64,000 nt of DNA from Lysobacterales bacterium (GCA_022844165.1 JALHMH010000020.1:1-64000), one strand, 5' to 3'. Positions 50,193 to 57,202 are shown, numbered from the stretch's first letter. Translations and numbers: made by a program. Notes: generated from the letters alone by a model not told the origin.

Positions 50193-51242
50193 ATGATGCG
50201 CTTTGACCAACTGCCCGGATTCGAGTCGACGATTCACCTGGCGCAATGGCTCGGCCTGGCAATGGGCGAGATCGACTGGTTTGCAGATCGCTACAACAAT
50301 CTGGCACGAAACCACGTGGAACAGAGCCACCACTACCGATGGCATTGGCTACCCAAACGCCGCGGCGGCGTGCGTATGATTGAGGCACCCAAAGCCCGTC
50401 TGCGGCGTGTTCAACGGCGCATCCTGGATCGGATTTTGCACCTCGTGCCATTGTCGGAAGCAGCCTGTGGATTCGTCCGCGGGCGATCATGCCTGGACCA
50501 TGCCCGGCGCCATGTTGGAGCAATCTGGCTGGTGACGACGGATCTTAGCGACTGGTTCGGCCGCATCGACGGTGCGCGCGTGTTCGCGCAATTTCGTTGG
50601 CTGGGCTATCCGCCAGCCGTGGCCGTTGCACTCACTGGCCTTTGTACGACGCGCGTGCCAGCTGCGCTCATTGCGCAAGCAGCGCCCGGCGATCGACTGT
50701 GGCTGCGCTCACCCCACTTGCCGCAAGGTGCGCCCACCTCGCCCAGTCTGGCCAACCTGGTGACCTCTCGGCTGGATCGGCGCCTGAGCGCCTACGCTGC
50801 GGCGGAAAACCTGCGCTATTCGCGATACGCTGATGATCTTGCGCTTTCGCCGCAGCATGGCGCAAATGCGCCACCTCCAGACCGCGTCATTGATGCTGTC
50901 ACGCGCATTGCTCGCAGCGAACGCTTCGTCATAAACACAGCCAAAACCCACATACGCAGGCAATGTGACTCGATGCGCATCTGCGGCAGCATCGTTAACG
51001 CCAGACTTAACTCAACCCGGGTCGAATACGATCGCCTGCGCGCCGCAGTACATCGCCACGTTCATGGGAACCCAGAGCCGGATCTCAACAAGTTGCTGGG
51101 TCAGCTGACATGGCTTGCCCAGCGAAACCCCAGACGCGCCGAGCGGCTGCGAGAGAAGTTGAAGCGTGAGGCGGGTCCGGGTTCCGACGAGTTGGAGCCA
51201 CAGATAGACCGGCTCACATGCAGCAGCGCAAACAACGGCTGA
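50193..51242 (+). CDS. Retron-like reverse transcriptase
   Basis: 349 residues. RT motifs in order: RGGVRMIEAPKARLRRVQRRIL; AACGFVRGRSCLDHARRHVG (the retron NAxxH position reads HARRH); TTDLSDWF; LPQGAPTSPSLANLV; the catalytic YSRYADDLALS; and TAKTHIRRQCDSMRICGSIVN, where retrons usually have VTG. The C-terminal part (EYDRLRAAVHRHVHGN) matches the retron thumb region. The catalytic Asp residues are all present. No effector gene (nuclease, HTH-toxin, membrane protein, protease) lies beside it: upstream is a two-component pair, downstream tRNA-fMet 28 bases away. Confidence 0.85.
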   Translation: MMRFDQLPGFESTIHLAQWLGLAMGEIDWFADRYNNLARNHVEQSHHYRWHWLPKRRGGVRMIEAPKARLRRVQRRILDRILHLVPLSEAACGFVRGRSCLDHARRHVGAIWLVTTDLSDWFGRIDGARVFAQFRWLGYPPAVAVALTGLCTTRVPAALIAQAAPGDRLWLRSPHLPQGAPTSPSLANLVTSRLDRRLSAYAAAENLRYSRYADDLALSPQHGANAPPPDRVIDAVTRIARSERFVINTAKTHIRRQCDSMRICGSIVNARLNSTRVEYDRLRAAVHRHVHGNPEPDLNKLLGQLTWLAQRNPRRAERLREKLKREAGPGSDELEPQIDRLTCSSANNG

Positions 51243-51575: not shown

Positions 51576-52466
51576 ATGAGCGCTCGGTTACGCACCGTTG
51601 TTTTTCCCGTTGCAGGACTCGGAACCCGGTTTCTACCGGCGACCAAAGTGGTACCGAAGGAACTACTGCCGATCATGGATCGGCCACTGATCCAATGGGC
51701 GGCGGACGAGGCGATCGCCGCAGGCGCGGACACGCTGGTGTTTGTCGTGAATCGCAACAAACGAGCGATCAACGACCACTTTGACATGGCGTTCGAACTT
51801 GAATCGAGGTTGGCGAGCAGCGGCAAGACCGAGCATTTGAAAATGGTGCGGGAAACTCTGCCGGCGCATGTGCGTCCGGTGTTTGTTTTGCAGCCAGAAG
51901 CGCGTGGACTCGGACACGCCGTTTTGTGCGCCAGGCCAGCCGTCGCCAATGGTCCCTTCGGCGTAATTTTGCCCGACGACTTTATCTTGAATCGCAATGG
52001 CCCCGGCGCGCTGGCGCAGATGGCTGCTGTTCAAGCCGAGCACGGCGGCAGCGTGATCGCCGTCGAGCCCGTCGAATGGAAGGACACATCGCGCTACGGC
52101 ATCGTCTCGGGCTCACAAGTCAATCGTCAGCTGATGAGGATTGATACGATCGTCGAAAAACCCAGGCCTGATGTAGCGCCAAGTAACCTGGGCGTTGTCG
52201 GACGATATGTGCTCGATCACCACATTTTCGATTTGTTGGAGCGCACCAATCCCGGCGCAGGCGGAGAAATCCAGCTCACAGACGCCATCGCTGCACTGCT
52301 GAAAGAACAGCCGGCGTACGCGTATCGCTTCGATGGCGTGCGCTACGACTGTGGAAACAAACTAGGTTACGTGCAGGCGACCCTTCGCTGTGCGCTAGAC
52401 GACGAGGAAATCGGCGACGAATTGCGCCGTACACTGGAGAACTGGCTGGCGCCGAGTGTGGCTTGA
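51576..52466 (+). CDS. galU: UTP--glucose-1-phosphate uridylyltransferase
   Basis: 296 residues, normal for GalU, which makes UDP-glucose for lipopolysaccharide, exopolysaccharide and trehalose synthesis. It starts MSARLRTVVFPVAGLGTRFLPATKVVPKELLPIMDRPLIQW: nucleotide loop GLGTRFLP and KELLPI lysine. LQPEARGLGHAVLCA, ILPDDFIL, VVGRYVL and GEIQLTDAIAALL follow. No other sugar-nucleotide genes are adjacent. Confidence 0.95.
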   Translation: MSARLRTVVFPVAGLGTRFLPATKVVPKELLPIMDRPLIQWAADEAIAAGADTLVFVVNRNKRAINDHFDMAFELESRLASSGKTEHLKMVRETLPAHVRPVFVLQPEARGLGHAVLCARPAVANGPFGVILPDDFILNRNGPGALAQMAAVQAEHGGSVIAVEPVEWKDTSRYGIVSGSQVNRQLMRIDTIVEKPRPDVAPSNLGVVGRYVLDHHIFDLLERTNPGAGGEIQLTDAIAALLKEQPAYAYRFDGVRYDCGNKLGYVQATLRCALDDEEIGDELRRTLENWLAPSVA

Positions 52467-52563: not shown

Positions 52564-53925
52564 TCAGGTGACAGGGGATCGTTCCAGCGAATCGACGATA
52601 TCGGAGCGGTATTGCCAGAGCTTGCCTTCGCTCTTATGCAACATTTGCGCGCGGATCTTCGCGGACCCCAGCACCCGGTTCAGTCGCGCGATTGTTTCGT
52701 CGAGATCGAATCCCGGCCCAGGCTGAACAGTGAAATCGAGATCGCCGTCGACTCGTTGGTGCAGCGAGAACTGGGCGATCGGCAAGTCGGCGAGTGCATG
52801 GGTGATGTCAATGTTGTTGAGGAAACTGCCATTGGCTCTGCGAATTCGAACAGGTTGCCGACCAAGCAGTCGGCGAAGCACAAATTCTCCGCCAACGCGC
52901 TCCAAAGTCGCCGTATCTCCGGTGCGGTATCTCACCAAGGGCAAGTAGTCGTTGAAGCCACCGGTCAGCACAACATCGCCTGCCTCGCCAATTCCTGGCG
53001 GCCGATTGTTCGCATCCAAAATCTCGACCACCAGCTCTGGCTGCAGCAACATGTGACCATCCACTGAGTTCTCGTACGCGGCGATCGGTCCGGCCTCATT
53101 GAGTGAATACACATCGGCGACAACGCACTTGAAGCGCGCTTCCAGCGCGTGGCGCAAACCTGGCAACAGTTGCATGGACGTGCTCAAAAGTATCTTGGGC
53201 CGGTGTTCGAACTCGATCTCCAGCAGCACAGCGAGGGACAGCGGATCGCCTGCAATTACCTCCGGCGCCAGCGCGTCGATGTAAGCGCCGCGGTCGCTCA
53301 AGTGACGCCAATCAACCGGATGCAGATTGATCTTGGCTAATCCACAATCATCGCGATAAGGGGTGACGGAGGTGTAGGTAAAACACTTCTGCTGCCAGCC
53401 AATCAGCAGTACGCCCACTTGCCCACGACCCGCGGTTAACTCGACGCCCAGTCGTCGATACGCCCGTTGGTGGTAACTCAAGTAGCGAGCGGCCACCACT
53501 GGATGCGAGGGCAGAAGGAGCGGGTGTCCGGTACTGCCGGTGGTACGGAAGTTGATGACGCGGTCGAGCGACAGGTCATCTGGAACGAATGCCGCGATAT
53601 CTGCCGCAAAATTGGCGCGCGACGTGGTGGGCCAATCGCCAAGTTCATCGCTGCCGGGTGCGTGCAAGCGCCAATACGGCACCTGTTCCCGCACACGTTT
53701 CAGAAACGCAGGCAGCCAAGCTGCGAAGTGCGGTCGTGGTTCGATATCGGCGCATCGCACGCGCTCGCTATGTTGGCGCACGGCATCCACTTCCATCGGC
53801 AGCAGGCGATGCCCACTGTGATTGCGAAACAACGGCGCCGCGGGATGTTCGCGCATTCGCTTCAGCAATTCCGCGCCGTGCGCCGTGAGTCCTGGATGCC
53901 GGTCGTCGTGTGTTGGGTTCTGCAC
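52564..53925 (-). CDS. ANL-superfamily adenylating enzyme, CapK/PaaK-like
   Basis: 453 residues from the GTG at 53925, which has GGGAG about seven bases upstream; the frame upstream to 54033 overlaps the preceding gene and is not used. The P-loop-like motif FRTTGSTGHPLLL matches the T(S/T)GSTGxP signature of CapK/phenylacetate-CoA-ligase-like enzymes. VYSLNEAGPIAAYEN (acidic residue of the second motif) and VRYRTGDTATLE (YRTGD) follow. Such enzymes activate a carboxylate as acyl-adenylate for transfer to CoA, an amine or another acceptor. It is the last gene of a four-gene leftward operon with a radical SAM enzyme and a VWA/metallopeptidase-like protein. Substrate unknown. Confidence 0.82.
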   Translation of the reverse strand: MQNPTHDDRHPGLTAHGAELLKRMREHPAAPLFRNHSGHRLLPMEVDAVRQHSERVRCADIEPRPHFAAWLPAFLKRVREQVPYWRLHAPGSDELGDWPTTSRANFAADIAAFVPDDLSLDRVINFRTTGSTGHPLLLPSHPVVAARYLSYHQRAYRRLGVELTAGRGQVGVLLIGWQQKCFTYTSVTPYRDDCGLAKINLHPVDWRHLSDRGAYIDALAPEVIAGDPLSLAVLLEIEFEHRPKILLSTSMQLLPGLRHALEARFKCVVADVYSLNEAGPIAAYENSVDGHMLLQPELVVEILDANNRPPGIGEAGDVVLTGGFNDYLPLVRYRTGDTATLERVGGEFVLRRLLGRQPVRIRRANGSFLNNIDITHALADLPIAQFSLHQRVDGDLDFTVQPGPGFDLDETIARLNRVLGSAKIRAQMLHKSEGKLWQYRSDIVDSLERSPVT

Positions 53926-53929
53926 TACC

Positions 53930-54505
53930 CTACTCCCGCGACCACTTGTCAGCCGATTCTTCCGCTGCCTTGCGCGCCAGAGCCTCGCGGATTGCACGAG
54001 CGCGCTGTTCCGCCGCGCGACTTGCGTCGACAAGACGCGCGCGCTCCATCGTGCTGACAGCCAGCCATCGATCGCGTGCCTGCACCAGGCTCTCGCCAGC
54101 CGGACGCTGACCCAGGGCCATGAGCGTCAACCGCGCCAACTCCTCGCGACGCTCGTCGTCGGCGATGACAGCTTCGGCGCTCAAATGAACGGCGAGTTCT
54201 CGAGCGCGGATCAGCAGCAGCGCCAGGAGCGCGTTCGGGTCATTCGGCCACTGCAATTGCGGCTCGACCAACAACCAACAGATCAACAATGCCAGGCGTG
54301 GATGTTCACGAGGCGAGATCGGACTAGACAATGCAGCCAGCGCGGTGATCGGCACGTCGATTCCGCGGGAGGACAATACGTCTCTTGCAATTGCATCGAC
54401 ATGGACCAGCCCAGCAGCACCAATGCGCGGCATCGCCAGAAAATCCGCTGGCGCTTCCGCGATGCGGCGGGTCAACAACGGTAGCGGCGCTCCCTCAATG
54501 TCCAT
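53930..54505 (-). CDS. Unknown protein of the VWA-radical SAM-adenylation operon
   Basis: 191 residues from the ATG at 54505, overlapping the radical SAM gene by 11 bases; an in-frame upstream start at 54568 is less likely. It is Ala/Leu/Arg-rich and almost entirely helical. It begins MDIEGAPLPLLTRRIAEAPADFLAMPRIGAAGLVHVDAIARDVLSSRG and ends in a charged helix (RAAEQRARAIREALARKAAEE). I recognise no domain and no catalytic motif; it may be a substrate carrier, scaffold or subunit. It is followed after four bases by the adenylating-enzyme gene. Confidence 0.7.
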   Translation of the reverse strand: MDIEGAPLPLLTRRIAEAPADFLAMPRIGAAGLVHVDAIARDVLSSRGIDVPITALAALSSPISPREHPRLALLICWLLVEPQLQWPNDPNALLALLLIRARELAVHLSAEAVIADDERREELARLTLMALGQRPAGESLVQARDRWLAVSTMERARLVDASRAAEQRARAIREALARKAAEESADKWSRE

Positions 54506-55439
54506 CCGAACCAGGCGCACAGGAAAATGCAAACTTACCCGCAACTTGCGTACTTGGGCAATCCTCACAAACGGCGCTGCGCCGATGACGCTGCATGTTG
54601 CGCCAAGTCATCGCCAATGTGCCGCGCTCAATCTGGGCGACCGGCACACCGTAATCGTCCAGGGTAAATGCGCAGGGCGCAACCCGCCCGAGTTCGTCGA
54701 TGAACCAAAGTACCGAGCCGGGCGCGCAGTCTGCGACCGGGTGCGGAATGCCGCTGGCAGCATCGCGCAACCGCGCAACATAGGCGTCTGTGCCAACAAG
54801 TCGCCCACCGGCGCACTTGATCTCTTCGCGGAGGGCCGGCAAGGTTGCGGCGAACTCGATCAGGTCAGAAGGACGCAGTCGTTCTTCGGCTGAAAAATCC
54901 GGCCGATCTCGCCATCCGAGTGCGTTGAAGGTCACTTCGTCGACGCCCGCCGAAACCAAAACCCGACAAAGTTCAGAGAAGGCGCCGATAGCGCTGCGCA
55001 TCAAGACCACGTTGATCCGCAATAGCGGCCTGGCCCTTTCCGCTGCCAACGATGTGATGCCGTCGAGCAACTTTTTCGTGCCGCCCGGCCAACCGCGCAG
55101 CTGGTCGTGCAGACCATCGATCGCGTCCAGGCTGATCGTCAGTTCGTCGAGAGCCAACAGGCATGTGCGCATCGCGGCCAGCCGCGTGCCGTTGGTGGTC
55201 AGACTGACGCGCAGTCCTTTTGATTTCGCATAGGCAGAAGCGGGCGCCAACGGCGGCCACAGCGTCGGCTCTCCGCCAATCCAGCTCAAATGCGTTGCAC
55301 CACCCTCAGCCAGCCGATCGATCGTCGCAACCGCGGTCGCGTACGAGACATGCGCCCTGGATTTTGGCAATCGTCGGTCGTATGCGCAGAAGCCACATGC
55401 CAGATTGCAGCGCGTATCGATGCGCCAGAGGGCGATCAT
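54495..55439 (-). CDS. Radical SAM enzyme with partial SPASM-like C terminus
   Basis: 314 residues. The cluster motif CNLACGFC (CxxxCxxC) starts at residue 11. LSWIGGEPTLWPPL is the GGEP SAM-binding motif, and VSLTTNGTRL and LTISLDAIDGLHDQLRG are typical barrel strands. The C-terminal region has further cysteines (DCAPGSVLWFIDELGRVAPCAF, CEDCPSTQVAGKFAFSC), suggesting an auxiliary iron-sulfur cluster as in peptide-modifying SPASM/twitch enzymes. Its ATG overlaps the stop of the VWA gene (ATGA). No precursor-peptide gene was found nearby, so the substrate could be one of the operon's own proteins or a small molecule. Confidence 0.88.
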   Translation of the reverse strand: MIALWRIDTRCNLACGFCAYDRRLPKSRAHVSYATAVATIDRLAEGGATHLSWIGGEPTLWPPLAPASAYAKSKGLRVSLTTNGTRLAAMRTCLLALDELTISLDAIDGLHDQLRGWPGGTKKLLDGITSLAAERARPLLRINVVLMRSAIGAFSELCRVLVSAGVDEVTFNALGWRDRPDFSAEERLRPSDLIEFAATLPALREEIKCAGGRLVGTDAYVARLRDAASGIPHPVADCAPGSVLWFIDELGRVAPCAFTLDDYGVPVAQIERGTLAMTWRNMQRHRRSAVCEDCPSTQVAGKFAFSCAPGSDGH

Positions 55440-57202
55440 ATGTCCGATATCACATCGTGACCTTGATAGTGCCGATTCGAGAACACGCGAGCAAAAGCAA
55501 GCAAGTCCTCAAGGCTTGTTAGGGCCGCAATCTGCCAGCCTTGCTCATCGCGTGCGCGCTTGATCCAATTCAACGCCGCCCAGTCCAGACTCTCCCAGCC
55601 GTCGGGCAGATTCAGCGCCAGGGTTCCGCCCCCGCCGGCATCGAGCAGCGCCTGGCGGCAAACATCGAGGCCGCTGTGGCCCTTCTCGTCGGGGCTGTCG
55701 AACATCGTTGAAGCGCCATCGTCCGACACCACCAGGATGTGGGTTGGCCGCAATAACTTCTTCCGCCCCGAATGCAAATCGCGCAGCAGCGGTAATGGGA
55801 ACTGCGTGCCGCCGCCGAAATAGCCGACCAGCACCCGCAGACAATCGCGAGCGTCGCGCACAAATCCATTCGTACTGGCGACGCTTTTCTTATCGCTCCA
55901 AAGATGCACCGCGACCCGGGCACCAGCACGTAGCGCCGACAAACAGATCACCGCACCGGCCAACGCCGGCCAGGAGATGACAACTCGGGGGTCCGGCATC
56001 GAACCGGAGCTGTCGACATACAGATCCAGGTCCAATGGTAATGCGGAATTGTGCTGTCCCTGTACCGTGCCAAACACTCTTTTGACCAGCGTCATTCCCG
56101 CAATCGGCGTTGGACTCTTCAGCAGCGATTCGCGCCAGTCGATCGCTGCAATCGGATCGCCGATCTCCCACAGTTCTGTACCCTCCATCAGCGGTTCGAT
56201 CGACTCGGGCAGACGCATCGTAGGAAACGGCACGAGATACGGACGGGCAAGCTCCTCGTAATAGCGGATCGCCGCCTCTTCGGGCGACAACCGCAGACCG
56301 GCCAGACGCAGAATCTCACCAAATTCGTAAGGCGTGCGCGTCTGACCGCGACCGGATGTGGGAGTGGGCTTTGCTGTCTCACCAATGTCATCGCGATCGC
56401 GAGAAATACCCGAGAGCGTCTCATCGAAGGCCGGATGCACGATGTCAGCGGCATCGATTTCTGTCAGCCCCTGTGGATCGCCACCGAGACCTGCATCGCG
56501 CGTATCGTGCCAATGCGCCAGGCTCGCAGCGCTCTTGGATTCGAGCAGGTACGGCAGCGCCAGTACACCGTAGCGCGACACACCATCCAGCCAGTGTTGA
56601 CTGTAGTGTCGCACCAGTCGCGCGGCGAGGCGAGCGTCTCCTTCCAACGTTTCGTGGTCCATCTTTGCAACCAATTCGCCGGAAGTCATCGCCCACAGTA
56701 ACTCATATGTCCGCTGATAAAACTGCCACAACGAACTGATCTCGACGGGCGCCACGCTTTGCGTCAGACGGCGCATCAGATCAGCCATGCGCAGGCCCGC
56801 GCTGCGCTGCAATCGATCGTTGATCAGCAAGTCAGTGTAAAGATTGCAGATCATCGGTGCCGACGCCTCAACGGTTGGCAGCGCCCGTCGCATGCGCGCC
56901 AGTGAACGCGTATGTTCGGTAACCGACGCTGGCGCGTACACATGGTGACCAATCTCGTGCGCGAGTATTTCCAATGCAAAATCCGTGATGCGCAGTTGCT
57001 CGACCGTTTCCAGATCGATCACCACGGTTTGATCGACCAACCGGATCATTGCAAAACTGCCCTGCAATCCTTCCTTGGCAGCATCAATGCGAAATTCGCA
57101 CAGAAGCGGGAATCGCAGGCGCGTGTATCGCGACCAAGCGCTCAGTGCGTTGGGCCAGGCAGCTTTCCAGAGTTCGATTGCGCTCACGTTTGTCGGATTC
57201 AA
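55436..57202 (-). CDS. HExxH / VWA-domain protein heading an unknown operon
   Basis: 588 residues. The N-terminal half carries a zinc-peptidase-like motif, ALEILAHEIGHHVYAP (HEIGH, about residue 82). The C-terminal part is a von Willebrand A-type domain with a MIDAS start, LDLDLYVDSSGSMPDP (DxSxS), and VVSDDGASTMFD (distal Asp). The combination resembles DUF2201-type putative metallopeptidase/VWA proteins, which usually pair with a MoxR AAA+ ATPase; no such ATPase gene is adjacent here. No signal peptide or membrane helix is seen, so it is cytoplasmic. It is first of four coupled genes. Confidence 0.85.
   Translation of the reverse strand: MNPTNVSAIELWKAAWPNALSAWSRYTRLRFPLLCEFRIDAAKEGLQGSFAMIRLVDQTVVIDLETVEQLRITDFALEILAHEIGHHVYAPASVTEHTRSLARMRRALPTVEASAPMICNLYTDLLINDRLQRSAGLRMADLMRRLTQSVAPVEISSLWQFYQRTYELLWAMTSGELVAKMDHETLEGDARLAARLVRHYSQHWLDGVSRYGVLALPYLLESKSAASLAHWHDTRDAGLGGDPQGLTEIDAADIVHPAFDETLSGISRDRDDIGETAKPTPTSGRGQTRTPYEFGEILRLAGLRLSPEEAAIRYYEELARPYLVPFPTMRLPESIEPLMEGTELWEIGDPIAAIDWRESLLKSPTPIAGMTLVKRVFGTVQGQHNSALPLDLDLYVDSSGSMPDPRVVISWPALAGAVICLSALRAGARVAVHLWSDKKSVASTNGFVRDARDCLRVLVGYFGGGTQFPLPLLRDLHSGRKKLLRPTHILVVSDDGASTMFDSPDEKGHSGLDVCRQALLDAGGGGTLALNLPDGWESLDWAALNWIKRARDEQGWQIAALTSLEDLLAFARVFSNRHYQGHDVISDI

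What the first reader, a model, noticed from the sequence alone, without database searches (positions are those of the whole stretch)
52564..57202. Four-gene operon: HExxH/VWA protein, radical SAM enzyme, unknown helical protein, CapK-like adenylating enzyme
Genes are welded together (4-base overlap, 11-base overlap, 4-base gap), so they must act as a unit. Established: radical SAM/SPASM enzymes modify peptides or cofactors, CapK-like enzymes adenylate carboxylates, VWA/HExxH proteins usually act with MoxR ATPases. I know of no pathway that combines all four, and neither a MoxR ATPase nor a precursor peptide is visible. It could be a new biosynthetic or protein-modification system, with maturation (HExxH), radical chemistry and acyl activation in one operon.
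Basis: partly seen in the sequence, partly recalled or inferred. Interest (0 to 1): 0.8.

Follow-up and report, generated by a model that had tools for sequence, protein, structure and literature searches.

The report
Unstudied MoxR–VWA–CapK gene system
The four genes are part of a larger gene set, found together in at least seven bacterial lineages, that joins an ATP-driven protein-remodelling machine to a carboxylic-acid-activating enzyme and often to vitamin-B3 (NAD) salvage genes; I found no description of it, so it is a clean target for discovering a new bacterial function.

Summary
It is not local chance. A scan of one genome per GTDB species found 255 relatives of the HExxH/VWA protein. 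In the 80 best loci (Pseudomonadota, Acidobacteriota, Verrucomicrobiota, Chloroflexota, Gemmatimonadota, Geobacteraceae, KSB1) the order is MoxR ATPase – ~330-aa unknown – HExxH/VWA – [radical SAM] – helical protein – CapK – [PnuC] – [NadR]. The 'missing' MoxR exists: in this genome it and the 330-aa gene lie on another contig. VWA and helical protein co-occur in 12 of 13 positive genomes among 300 of the order, even where the operon is split. The radical SAM is an accessory, absent from some whole genomes. No conserved precursor peptide was found. The helical protein is unmatched in Pfam, NCBIfam and PDB and ends in Arg-Glu/Asp in 74 of 74 relatives. Best reading: a MoxR–VWA remodelling machine whose dedicated client is the helical-protein/CapK adenylating pair, docked through that acidic C-terminus (inferred), sometimes joined by radical SAM and NMN/NAD enzymes. 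Literature searches found no description.

The parts
55436..57202 (-). HExxH/VWA protein (588 aa from TTG 57202; GTG at 57187 is an alternative start)
   Evidence: Orthologues in 12/300 genomes of the order and 255 GTDB species. No Pfam family in this protein; VWA_2 sub-threshold in 2 of 10 relatives.
56942..56959 (-). HEIGHH zinc-binding-type motif (residues 82-87); conserved NLYTD follows at 120-124
   Evidence: Invariant in the 10-sequence alignment; of the 79 domain segments tested, 75 have HEIGH and 2 HEVGH, and the 2 others were C-terminal partial segments.
56000..56014 (-). MIDAS motif DSSGS (residues 397-401) of the VWA domain; T466 and D494 complete DxSxS-T-D
   Evidence: Invariant columns; DxSGS in 79/79.
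54495..55439 (-). radical SAM protein (314 aa) with a reduced C-terminal Fe-S region
   Evidence: PF04055 7e-16. Conserved C238, C256, C291, C294; SPASM below cut-off (14.9 vs 21.5 bits).
55386..55409 (-). radical SAM CxxxCxxC motif
   Evidence: CNLACGFC; CxxxCxxC in 33 of 34 operon-linked homologues; the exception, L051, aligns without its N-terminus.
53930..54505 (-). HEL: 191-aa helical protein, no known family or fold
   Evidence: AlphaFold2 mean pLDDT 93.9, helical apart from isolated strand/bridge residues, C-terminal helix 152-190. No PDB structural match at E<=0.001, no PDB sequence match, no Pfam match in this protein.
53933..53956 (-). HEL C-terminal tail SADKWSRE-stop; last residue always Glu or Asp
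   Evidence: 72/74 relatives end -RE, 2/74 -RD; last codon GAA 47, GAG 25, GAC 2; the other seven proteins of the system have 19-53 different ends.
52564..53925 (-). CapK/PaaK-like adenylate-forming enzyme (453 aa, GTG start)
   Evidence: NF045666 58.5 bits, cut-off 300. PF00501 above cut-off in relatives. PaaK structures E=4e-13 with the family profile. Present in 19/19 VWA-positive genomes tested.
53521..53544 (-). CapK ATP-binding-type motif TTGSTGHP
   Evidence: Alignment A5, mostly conserved columns.
52915..52929 (-). CapK adenylation motif YRTGD
   Evidence: YR[TS][GN]D in 72/72 relatives.

Best explanation
The four genes are the distal part of a conserved 5-to-8-gene system. Its core is a MoxR-type AAA+ ATPase, a ~330-aa partner (P330), the HExxH/VWA protein, the helical protein HEL and the CapK-like adenylating enzyme. 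Most likely MoxR, VWA and P330 form an ATP-driven remodelling machine of the kind known from NorQ/NorD and CbbQ/CbbO. Its dedicated client, encoded next door as clients of such machines usually are, is the HEL-CapK pair. CapK adenylates a carboxylic acid. HEL carries CapK and presents an exposed C-terminal helix ending in a free Arg-Glu/Asp; the terminal acid docks on the metal of the VWA MIDAS site, bringing CapK to the machine, which then activates, matures or resets it. The radical SAM enzyme and the NMN transporter and NadR are optional modules that tailor or supply the substrate, so the pathway probably touches pyridine nucleotides. Shown: gene order, co-inheritance, intact catalytic motifs, the invariant acidic C-terminus, and that radical SAM, PnuC and NadR are optional. 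Inferred: complex formation, docking at the MIDAS, CapK as client, and the chemistry.
For: Conserved order in 80 loci of at least seven lineages: P330 77, MoxR 74, HEL 72, CapK 70, NadR 61, rSAM 36, PnuC 32. Of 300 genomes of the order, 12 have VWA and 13 HEL, and 12 are shared; the 13th is a 77% complete bin. CapK is in 19/19 VWA-positive genomes tested, including those where it is not at the locus. The MoxR orthologue is in 11/12 VWA-positive genomes of the order at E<1e-200; five VWA-negative genomes have no match or only remote MoxRs. In this family the operon is broken at different points (window genome; G011; G021/G059/G066) yet the set is kept, which points to joint function rather than linkage alone. 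HEL and CapK are adjacent in 73 pairs and duplicated together in L090, L095 and L108. MIDAS DxSGS intact in 79/79. HEL ends only in E or D. MIDAS metals take a sixth ligand from the bound partner, and NorQD is proposed to use acidic residues of its client (PMC13036017). MoxR proteins mature clients and usually co-occur with VWA partners encoded nearby (PMC3893208).
Against: No complex could be modelled or measured. The MIDAS docking rests on one conserved residue; MIDAS ligands need not be C-terminal, so a fixed C-terminus could equally mean chemistry on the terminal carboxylate. That CapK is the client is an analogy. HExxH suggests a metallopeptidase, which NorD/CbbO-type partners are not known to be (own knowledge). 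P330 is unexplained. In this genome NadR gave no match, so the pyridine-nucleotide link is not universal.
Confidence: 0.42

Rival explanations
1. HEL is the acceptor, not an adapter: CapK adenylates the C-terminal Glu/Asp carboxylate of HEL (or an acid that is then loaded on HEL) and attaches it to a target, in a Pup- or ubiquitin-like way. MoxR-VWA-HExxH unfolds or cleaves the conjugate.
For: Exact and invariant C-terminus R-E/D-stop in 74/74, not explained by codon overlap (GAA, GAG and GAC all used). HEL and CapK adjacent and co-duplicated. HExxH motif in the partner of an AAA+ ATPase.
Against: ANL/PaaK enzymes are not known to me to adenylate protein C-termini. There is no GG tail or disordered linker: the C-terminal helix is predicted with confidence up to about residue 180 and is less sure at the end (pLDDT 82, then 66).
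Confidence: 0.2
2. It is a cofactor pathway: PnuC and NadR supply a pyridine (di)nucleotide, CapK activates a carboxylate on it, radical SAM tailors it where present, and MoxR-VWA-HExxH inserts the finished (metal-bearing) cofactor into a target enzyme, in the manner of the nickel-pincer or FeGP cofactors.
For: NadR is conserved at the end of the operon in 61/80 loci and PnuC in 32, over several phyla. NadR keeps HxGH in 57/57 and the kinase P-loop in 56/57 and matches solved NadR. MoxR-VWA pairs are known metal inserters. The closest rSAM models include cofactor enzymes (NirJ, AhbC/D, MftC).
Against: This genome has no match to NadR, some lineages lack PnuC, and rSAM is often missing, so none of the presumed cofactor enzymes except CapK is universal. 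No common target enzyme is encoded beside the operon.
Confidence: 0.22
3. One reading: the radical SAM enzyme modifies a small precursor peptide (RiPP) and the other genes process it.
For: Radical SAM with a SPASM-like C-terminus; weak similarity to peptide maturases.
Against: No short ORF is conserved within or beside the operon beyond the genus Janthinobacterium. Gaps are mostly under 25 bases. rSAM is optional. SPASM is below cut-off.
Confidence: 0.05
4. Unrelated genes in a chance or recently assembled neighbourhood.
For: The operon is fragmented within the window's own family.
Against: Same order in at least seven lineages; the core is retained in split genomes.
Confidence: 0.02

Closest known systems
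NorQ/NorD, CbbQ/CbbO, RavA/ViaA and CoxD/CoxE (MoxR AAA+ with VWA partner)
   Same: MoxR-class ATPase (PF07726 and PF17863 above cut-off) encoded beside a VWA protein with intact MIDAS and next to a putative client
   Different: The VWA partner has an N-terminal HExxH region; there is a third conserved partner (P330); the neighbouring genes encode an adenylating enzyme and a helical protein; the MoxR is a divergent 526-aa form (best PDB sequence match E=6e-5)
PaaK/CapK phenylacetate-CoA ligase-like enzymes; DVU_1553 family (NF045666)
   Same: AMP-binding domain and YRTGD motif; PaaK structures found at E=4e-13
   Different: Far below the family cut-offs (58.5 vs 300 bits); constant HEL partner
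NadR (NMN adenylyltransferase/ribosylnicotinamide kinase) and PnuC
   Same: TIGR01526 147.7 bits and AAA_28 above cut-off in L054; PnuC TIGR01528 above cut-off; HxGH and P-loop kept
   Different: Below the TIGR01526 cut-off of 341; embedded in a MoxR-VWA operon; no match in the window's genome at the sensitivity used
vWA-MoxR ternary conflict systems (VMAP, FtsH subsystems; PMC7159879)
   Same: vWA + MoxR, one subsystem with a radical SAM effector
   Different: The text does not mention NadR, PnuC, CapK or HExxH; no PADLOC match for the core proteins

Membership tests
MoxR AAA+ / VWA partner systems | MoxR-class ATPase (AAA_3 with lid) encoded with or co-inherited with a VWA protein | tested here: met
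   PF07726 and PF17863 above cut-off in L054 and L025/L026; 74/80 loci; in trans in this genome
MoxR AAA+ / VWA partner systems | VWA protein with complete MIDAS DxSxS-T-D | tested here: met
MoxR AAA+ / VWA partner systems | physical complex and ATP-dependent action on a client | not testable with these tools
   needs biochemistry or complex prediction
DUF2201 VWA-metallopeptidase (PF13203/PF09967) | profile match to PF13203 | tested here: not met
   No match in this genome or in hmmscan of 10 relatives; resemblance of the HExxH...NxxxD layout is from memory only
PaaK/CapK ANL adenylating enzymes | AMP-binding domain and adenylation motifs | tested here: met
   PF00501 above cut-off in L026 and L054, though not in the window protein itself; YR[TS][GN]D 72/72; PaaK structures
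DVU_1553 family AMP-dependent CoA ligase | curated cut-off of 300 bits | tested here: not met
   58.5 bits (window), 81.6 bits (L054)
Radical SAM superfamily | CxxxCxxC and PF04055 above cut-off | tested here: met
Radical SAM/SPASM maturases | SPASM domain above cut-off with seven cysteines | tested here: not met
   14.9 vs 21.5 bits; four conserved C-terminal cysteines
RiPP biosynthesis | conserved precursor peptide beside the maturase | tested here: not met
   an unlinked precursor was not sought
Viperins (prokaryotic) | NF038283 cut-off of 180 bits | tested here: not met
   49.9 bits
vWA-MoxR ternary conflict systems | VMAP or comparable third component plus effector | tested here: inconclusive
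   No PADLOC hit to the core; P330 has no PDB structural match; VMAP models not searched directly

The most novel reading that the evidence does not exclude
An undescribed, widely distributed bacterial machine in which a MoxR-VWA-metallopeptidase complex, a helical carrier protein with an invariant C-terminal acid and an adenylating enzyme carry out a new protein-conjugation or cofactor-attachment reaction linked to pyridine nucleotides.
Probability: 0.35. Interest if true: 0.9.

Novelty: new variant of a known kind. Interest (0 to 1): 0.72.

Why it matters
At least 255 sequenced species in several phyla carry this VWA family. Three of the five core protein families (HExxH/VWA, P330, HEL) have no curated family above threshold, and HEL and P330 have no match among solved structures, yet the set is co-inherited as tightly as a known machine. 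It would give MoxR-VWA machines a new class of client (an acyl-adenylating enzyme) and possibly a new NAD-linked modification. Culturable carriers (Paucimonas lemoignei, Pseudoxanthomonas daejeonensis, Janthinobacterium, Dyella) make it testable.

Tried and rejected
Precursor peptide: no small ORF conserved beyond one genus. Further operon members: no other family of at least 80 aa is shared across lineages in the operon. Defence system: no PADLOC hit except generic viperin-type matches of the radical SAM. Plasmid carriage: no match in PLSDB. DUF2201 membership: not met. Structural homologues of HEL and P330: none significant. Weak Pfam hits of HEL (LcrG, DUF4158, TY-Chap3) are scattered and taken as coiled-coil noise. 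A first neighbourhood scan used a CapK seed in the wrong frame and was redone. An apparent TGA in the CapK of G011 appears to lie before a plausible ATG start of a 421-aa ORF, so I do not call it a pseudogene.

Full report
OBSERVATION. The overlaps of 4 and 11 bases and the gap of 4 bases follow from these coordinates. The VWA protein has HEIGHH and a complete MIDAS (DSSGS, T466, D494), invariant in ten relatives. The radical SAM has CNLACGFC; Pfam recognises it (7e-16) but its SPASM match is below cut-off, with four conserved C-terminal cysteines. The CapK-like protein has TTGSTGHP and YRTGD; it is below the NCBIfam cut-offs, but relatives pass PF00501 and PaaK structures match the family profile at 4e-13.

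IT IS PART OF A LARGER CONSERVED SYSTEM. A scan of one genome per GTDB species with the VWA alignment found 255 relatives; the best 80 loci were fetched. Profile searches of these loci give MoxR ATPase - P330 - VWA - [rSAM] - HEL - CapK - [PnuC] - [NadR]. Counts out of 80: P330 77, MoxR 74, HEL 72, CapK 70, NadR 61, rSAM 36, PnuC 32; several loci lacking a gene end at a contig edge. From the same output, 32 loci have VWA, rSAM, HEL and CapK, 27 of them in exactly the window's order. The loci come from Pseudomonadota, Verrucomicrobiota, Chloroflexota, Acidobacteriota, Gemmatimonadota, a Geobacteraceae bin and a KSB1 bin. Gaps between neighbours are mostly under 25 bases. No further family of 80 aa or more and no small ORF of the operon is shared beyond single lineages.

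THE 'MISSING' MoxR. In this genome a MoxR orthologue (68-79% identical to those in the related operons) and P330 sit together on another contig (G000:C52; loci L003/L034), between an NYN-domain gene and genes that read as GrpE, DnaK and DnaJ. The family to which this genome belongs has broken the ancestral operon at different points. Window genome: MoxR-P330 | VWA-rSAM-HEL-CapK. G011 (same genus): MoxR-P330 | VWA-rSAM-HEL | CapK. G021 and G059: MoxR-P330-VWA | rSAM-HEL-CapK. G066: P330-VWA | rSAM-HEL-CapK.

CO-INHERITANCE. In 300 genomes of the order, VWA occurs in 12 and HEL in 13; 12 are the same, and the 13th (G052) is only 77% complete. In a class-wide draw of 369 genomes, HEL and full-length VWA occur in the same three; seven further VWA hits are weak partial matches. 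CapK is present in 12/12 and in 7/7 further VWA-positive genomes, including those with no CapK at the locus; one of the seven (L035) is the same organism as G011, so the independent total is nearer 18. The MoxR orthologue is found at E<1e-200 in 11 of 12 VWA-positive genomes (the exception, G066, is 86% complete), while five VWA-negative genomes have nothing or matches no better than about 1e-6. These genomes are related, so counts are not independent; but different breakpoints with a retained set argue for joint function. The radical SAM is different: G030, G045 and G094 have no match and G013 only a weak one (2e-5), although they carry the rest, and its presence changes 12 times on the VWA tree (a quick tree). 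It is an accessory. NadR also changes 12 times, and the window's genome has no match to it.

WHAT THE UNKNOWN PARTS LOOK LIKE. HEL is predicted with high confidence (pLDDT 93.9) as helical with a long C-terminal helix. P330 is a helical N-terminal half followed by a beta domain (pLDDT 94.6). Neither has a significant structural match in the PDB. All 74 HEL proteins examined stop exactly after Arg-Glu (72) or Arg-Asp (2), with GAA, GAG and GAC codons, whereas the ends of the other seven proteins vary. In three Chloroflexi/Acidobacteria loci HEL and CapK are duplicated together, one pair after VWA and one after rSAM (L090, L095, L108), which suggests that HEL and CapK work as a pair.

MECHANISM (inferred). 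MoxR ATPases work with VWA partners to remodel clients that are often encoded beside them (NOR, Rubisco, CO dehydrogenase; PMC3893208 and PMC13036017). MIDAS metals take a sixth ligand from the bound partner, and acidic client residues are implicated in NorQD. A conserved partner whose free C-terminus is always Glu or Asp, co-inherited with a VWA protein whose MIDAS is intact, is best read as that ligand: HEL would tether CapK to the MoxR-VWA-P330 machine, which activates or resets CapK. The alternative reading of the same fact, that the C-terminal carboxylate itself is the substrate of CapK or of the HExxH domain, is a serious rival. PnuC and NadR, with catalytic motifs kept, suggest a link to pyridine nucleotides; whether as supply, substrate or sensor is open.

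NOVELTY. Full-text searches for MoxR with NadR or PnuC, and for the wider combination, found nothing relevant; many subscription papers and all preprints are outside that library, so an existing description cannot be excluded. The vWA-MoxR conflict systems (PMC7159879) share two components but the text does not mention this set. I file it as a new variant of the MoxR-VWA kind, because the ATPase and MIDAS criteria are met and the rest is not known to me from any described system.

Noticed in passing
G000 contig C52 (locus L034:6636-10522): The MoxR and P330 genes of this genome lie between an NYN-domain gene and genes that read as GrpE-DnaK-DnaJ; in the same-genus genome G011 they lie in another neighbourhood (L186).
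   Followed up: partly
L090, L094, L085 (Chloroflexi): A stand-alone nucleotidyltransferase (about 159 aa in L090) resembling the N-terminal half of NadR, without the kinase half, follows CapK.
   Followed up: partly
L090:10820-16258, L095:10731-15738, L108:10700-16239: HEL-CapK duplicated: one pair after VWA, a second after the radical SAM; the HEL tails differ (for example AAAQSSRE vs ANAKAMRE in L108) but keep the final RE.
   Followed up: partly
L069:8998-10743 (Duganella sacchari): The VWA gene is read as two consecutive ORFs, HExxH half and VWA half, separated by 3 bases between matched segments; natural split or sequencing error.
   Followed up: no
L059, L067, L068, L070, L071, L078, L093: In Janthinobacterium an extra ~157-aa gene sits between MoxR and P330.
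   Followed up: no
window 50193-51242 (+): A 349-aa reverse transcriptase (PF00078, 1e-21) stands near the operon, beside a nucleotidyltransferase gene at 51576-52466; not examined for a retron RNA.
   Followed up: no
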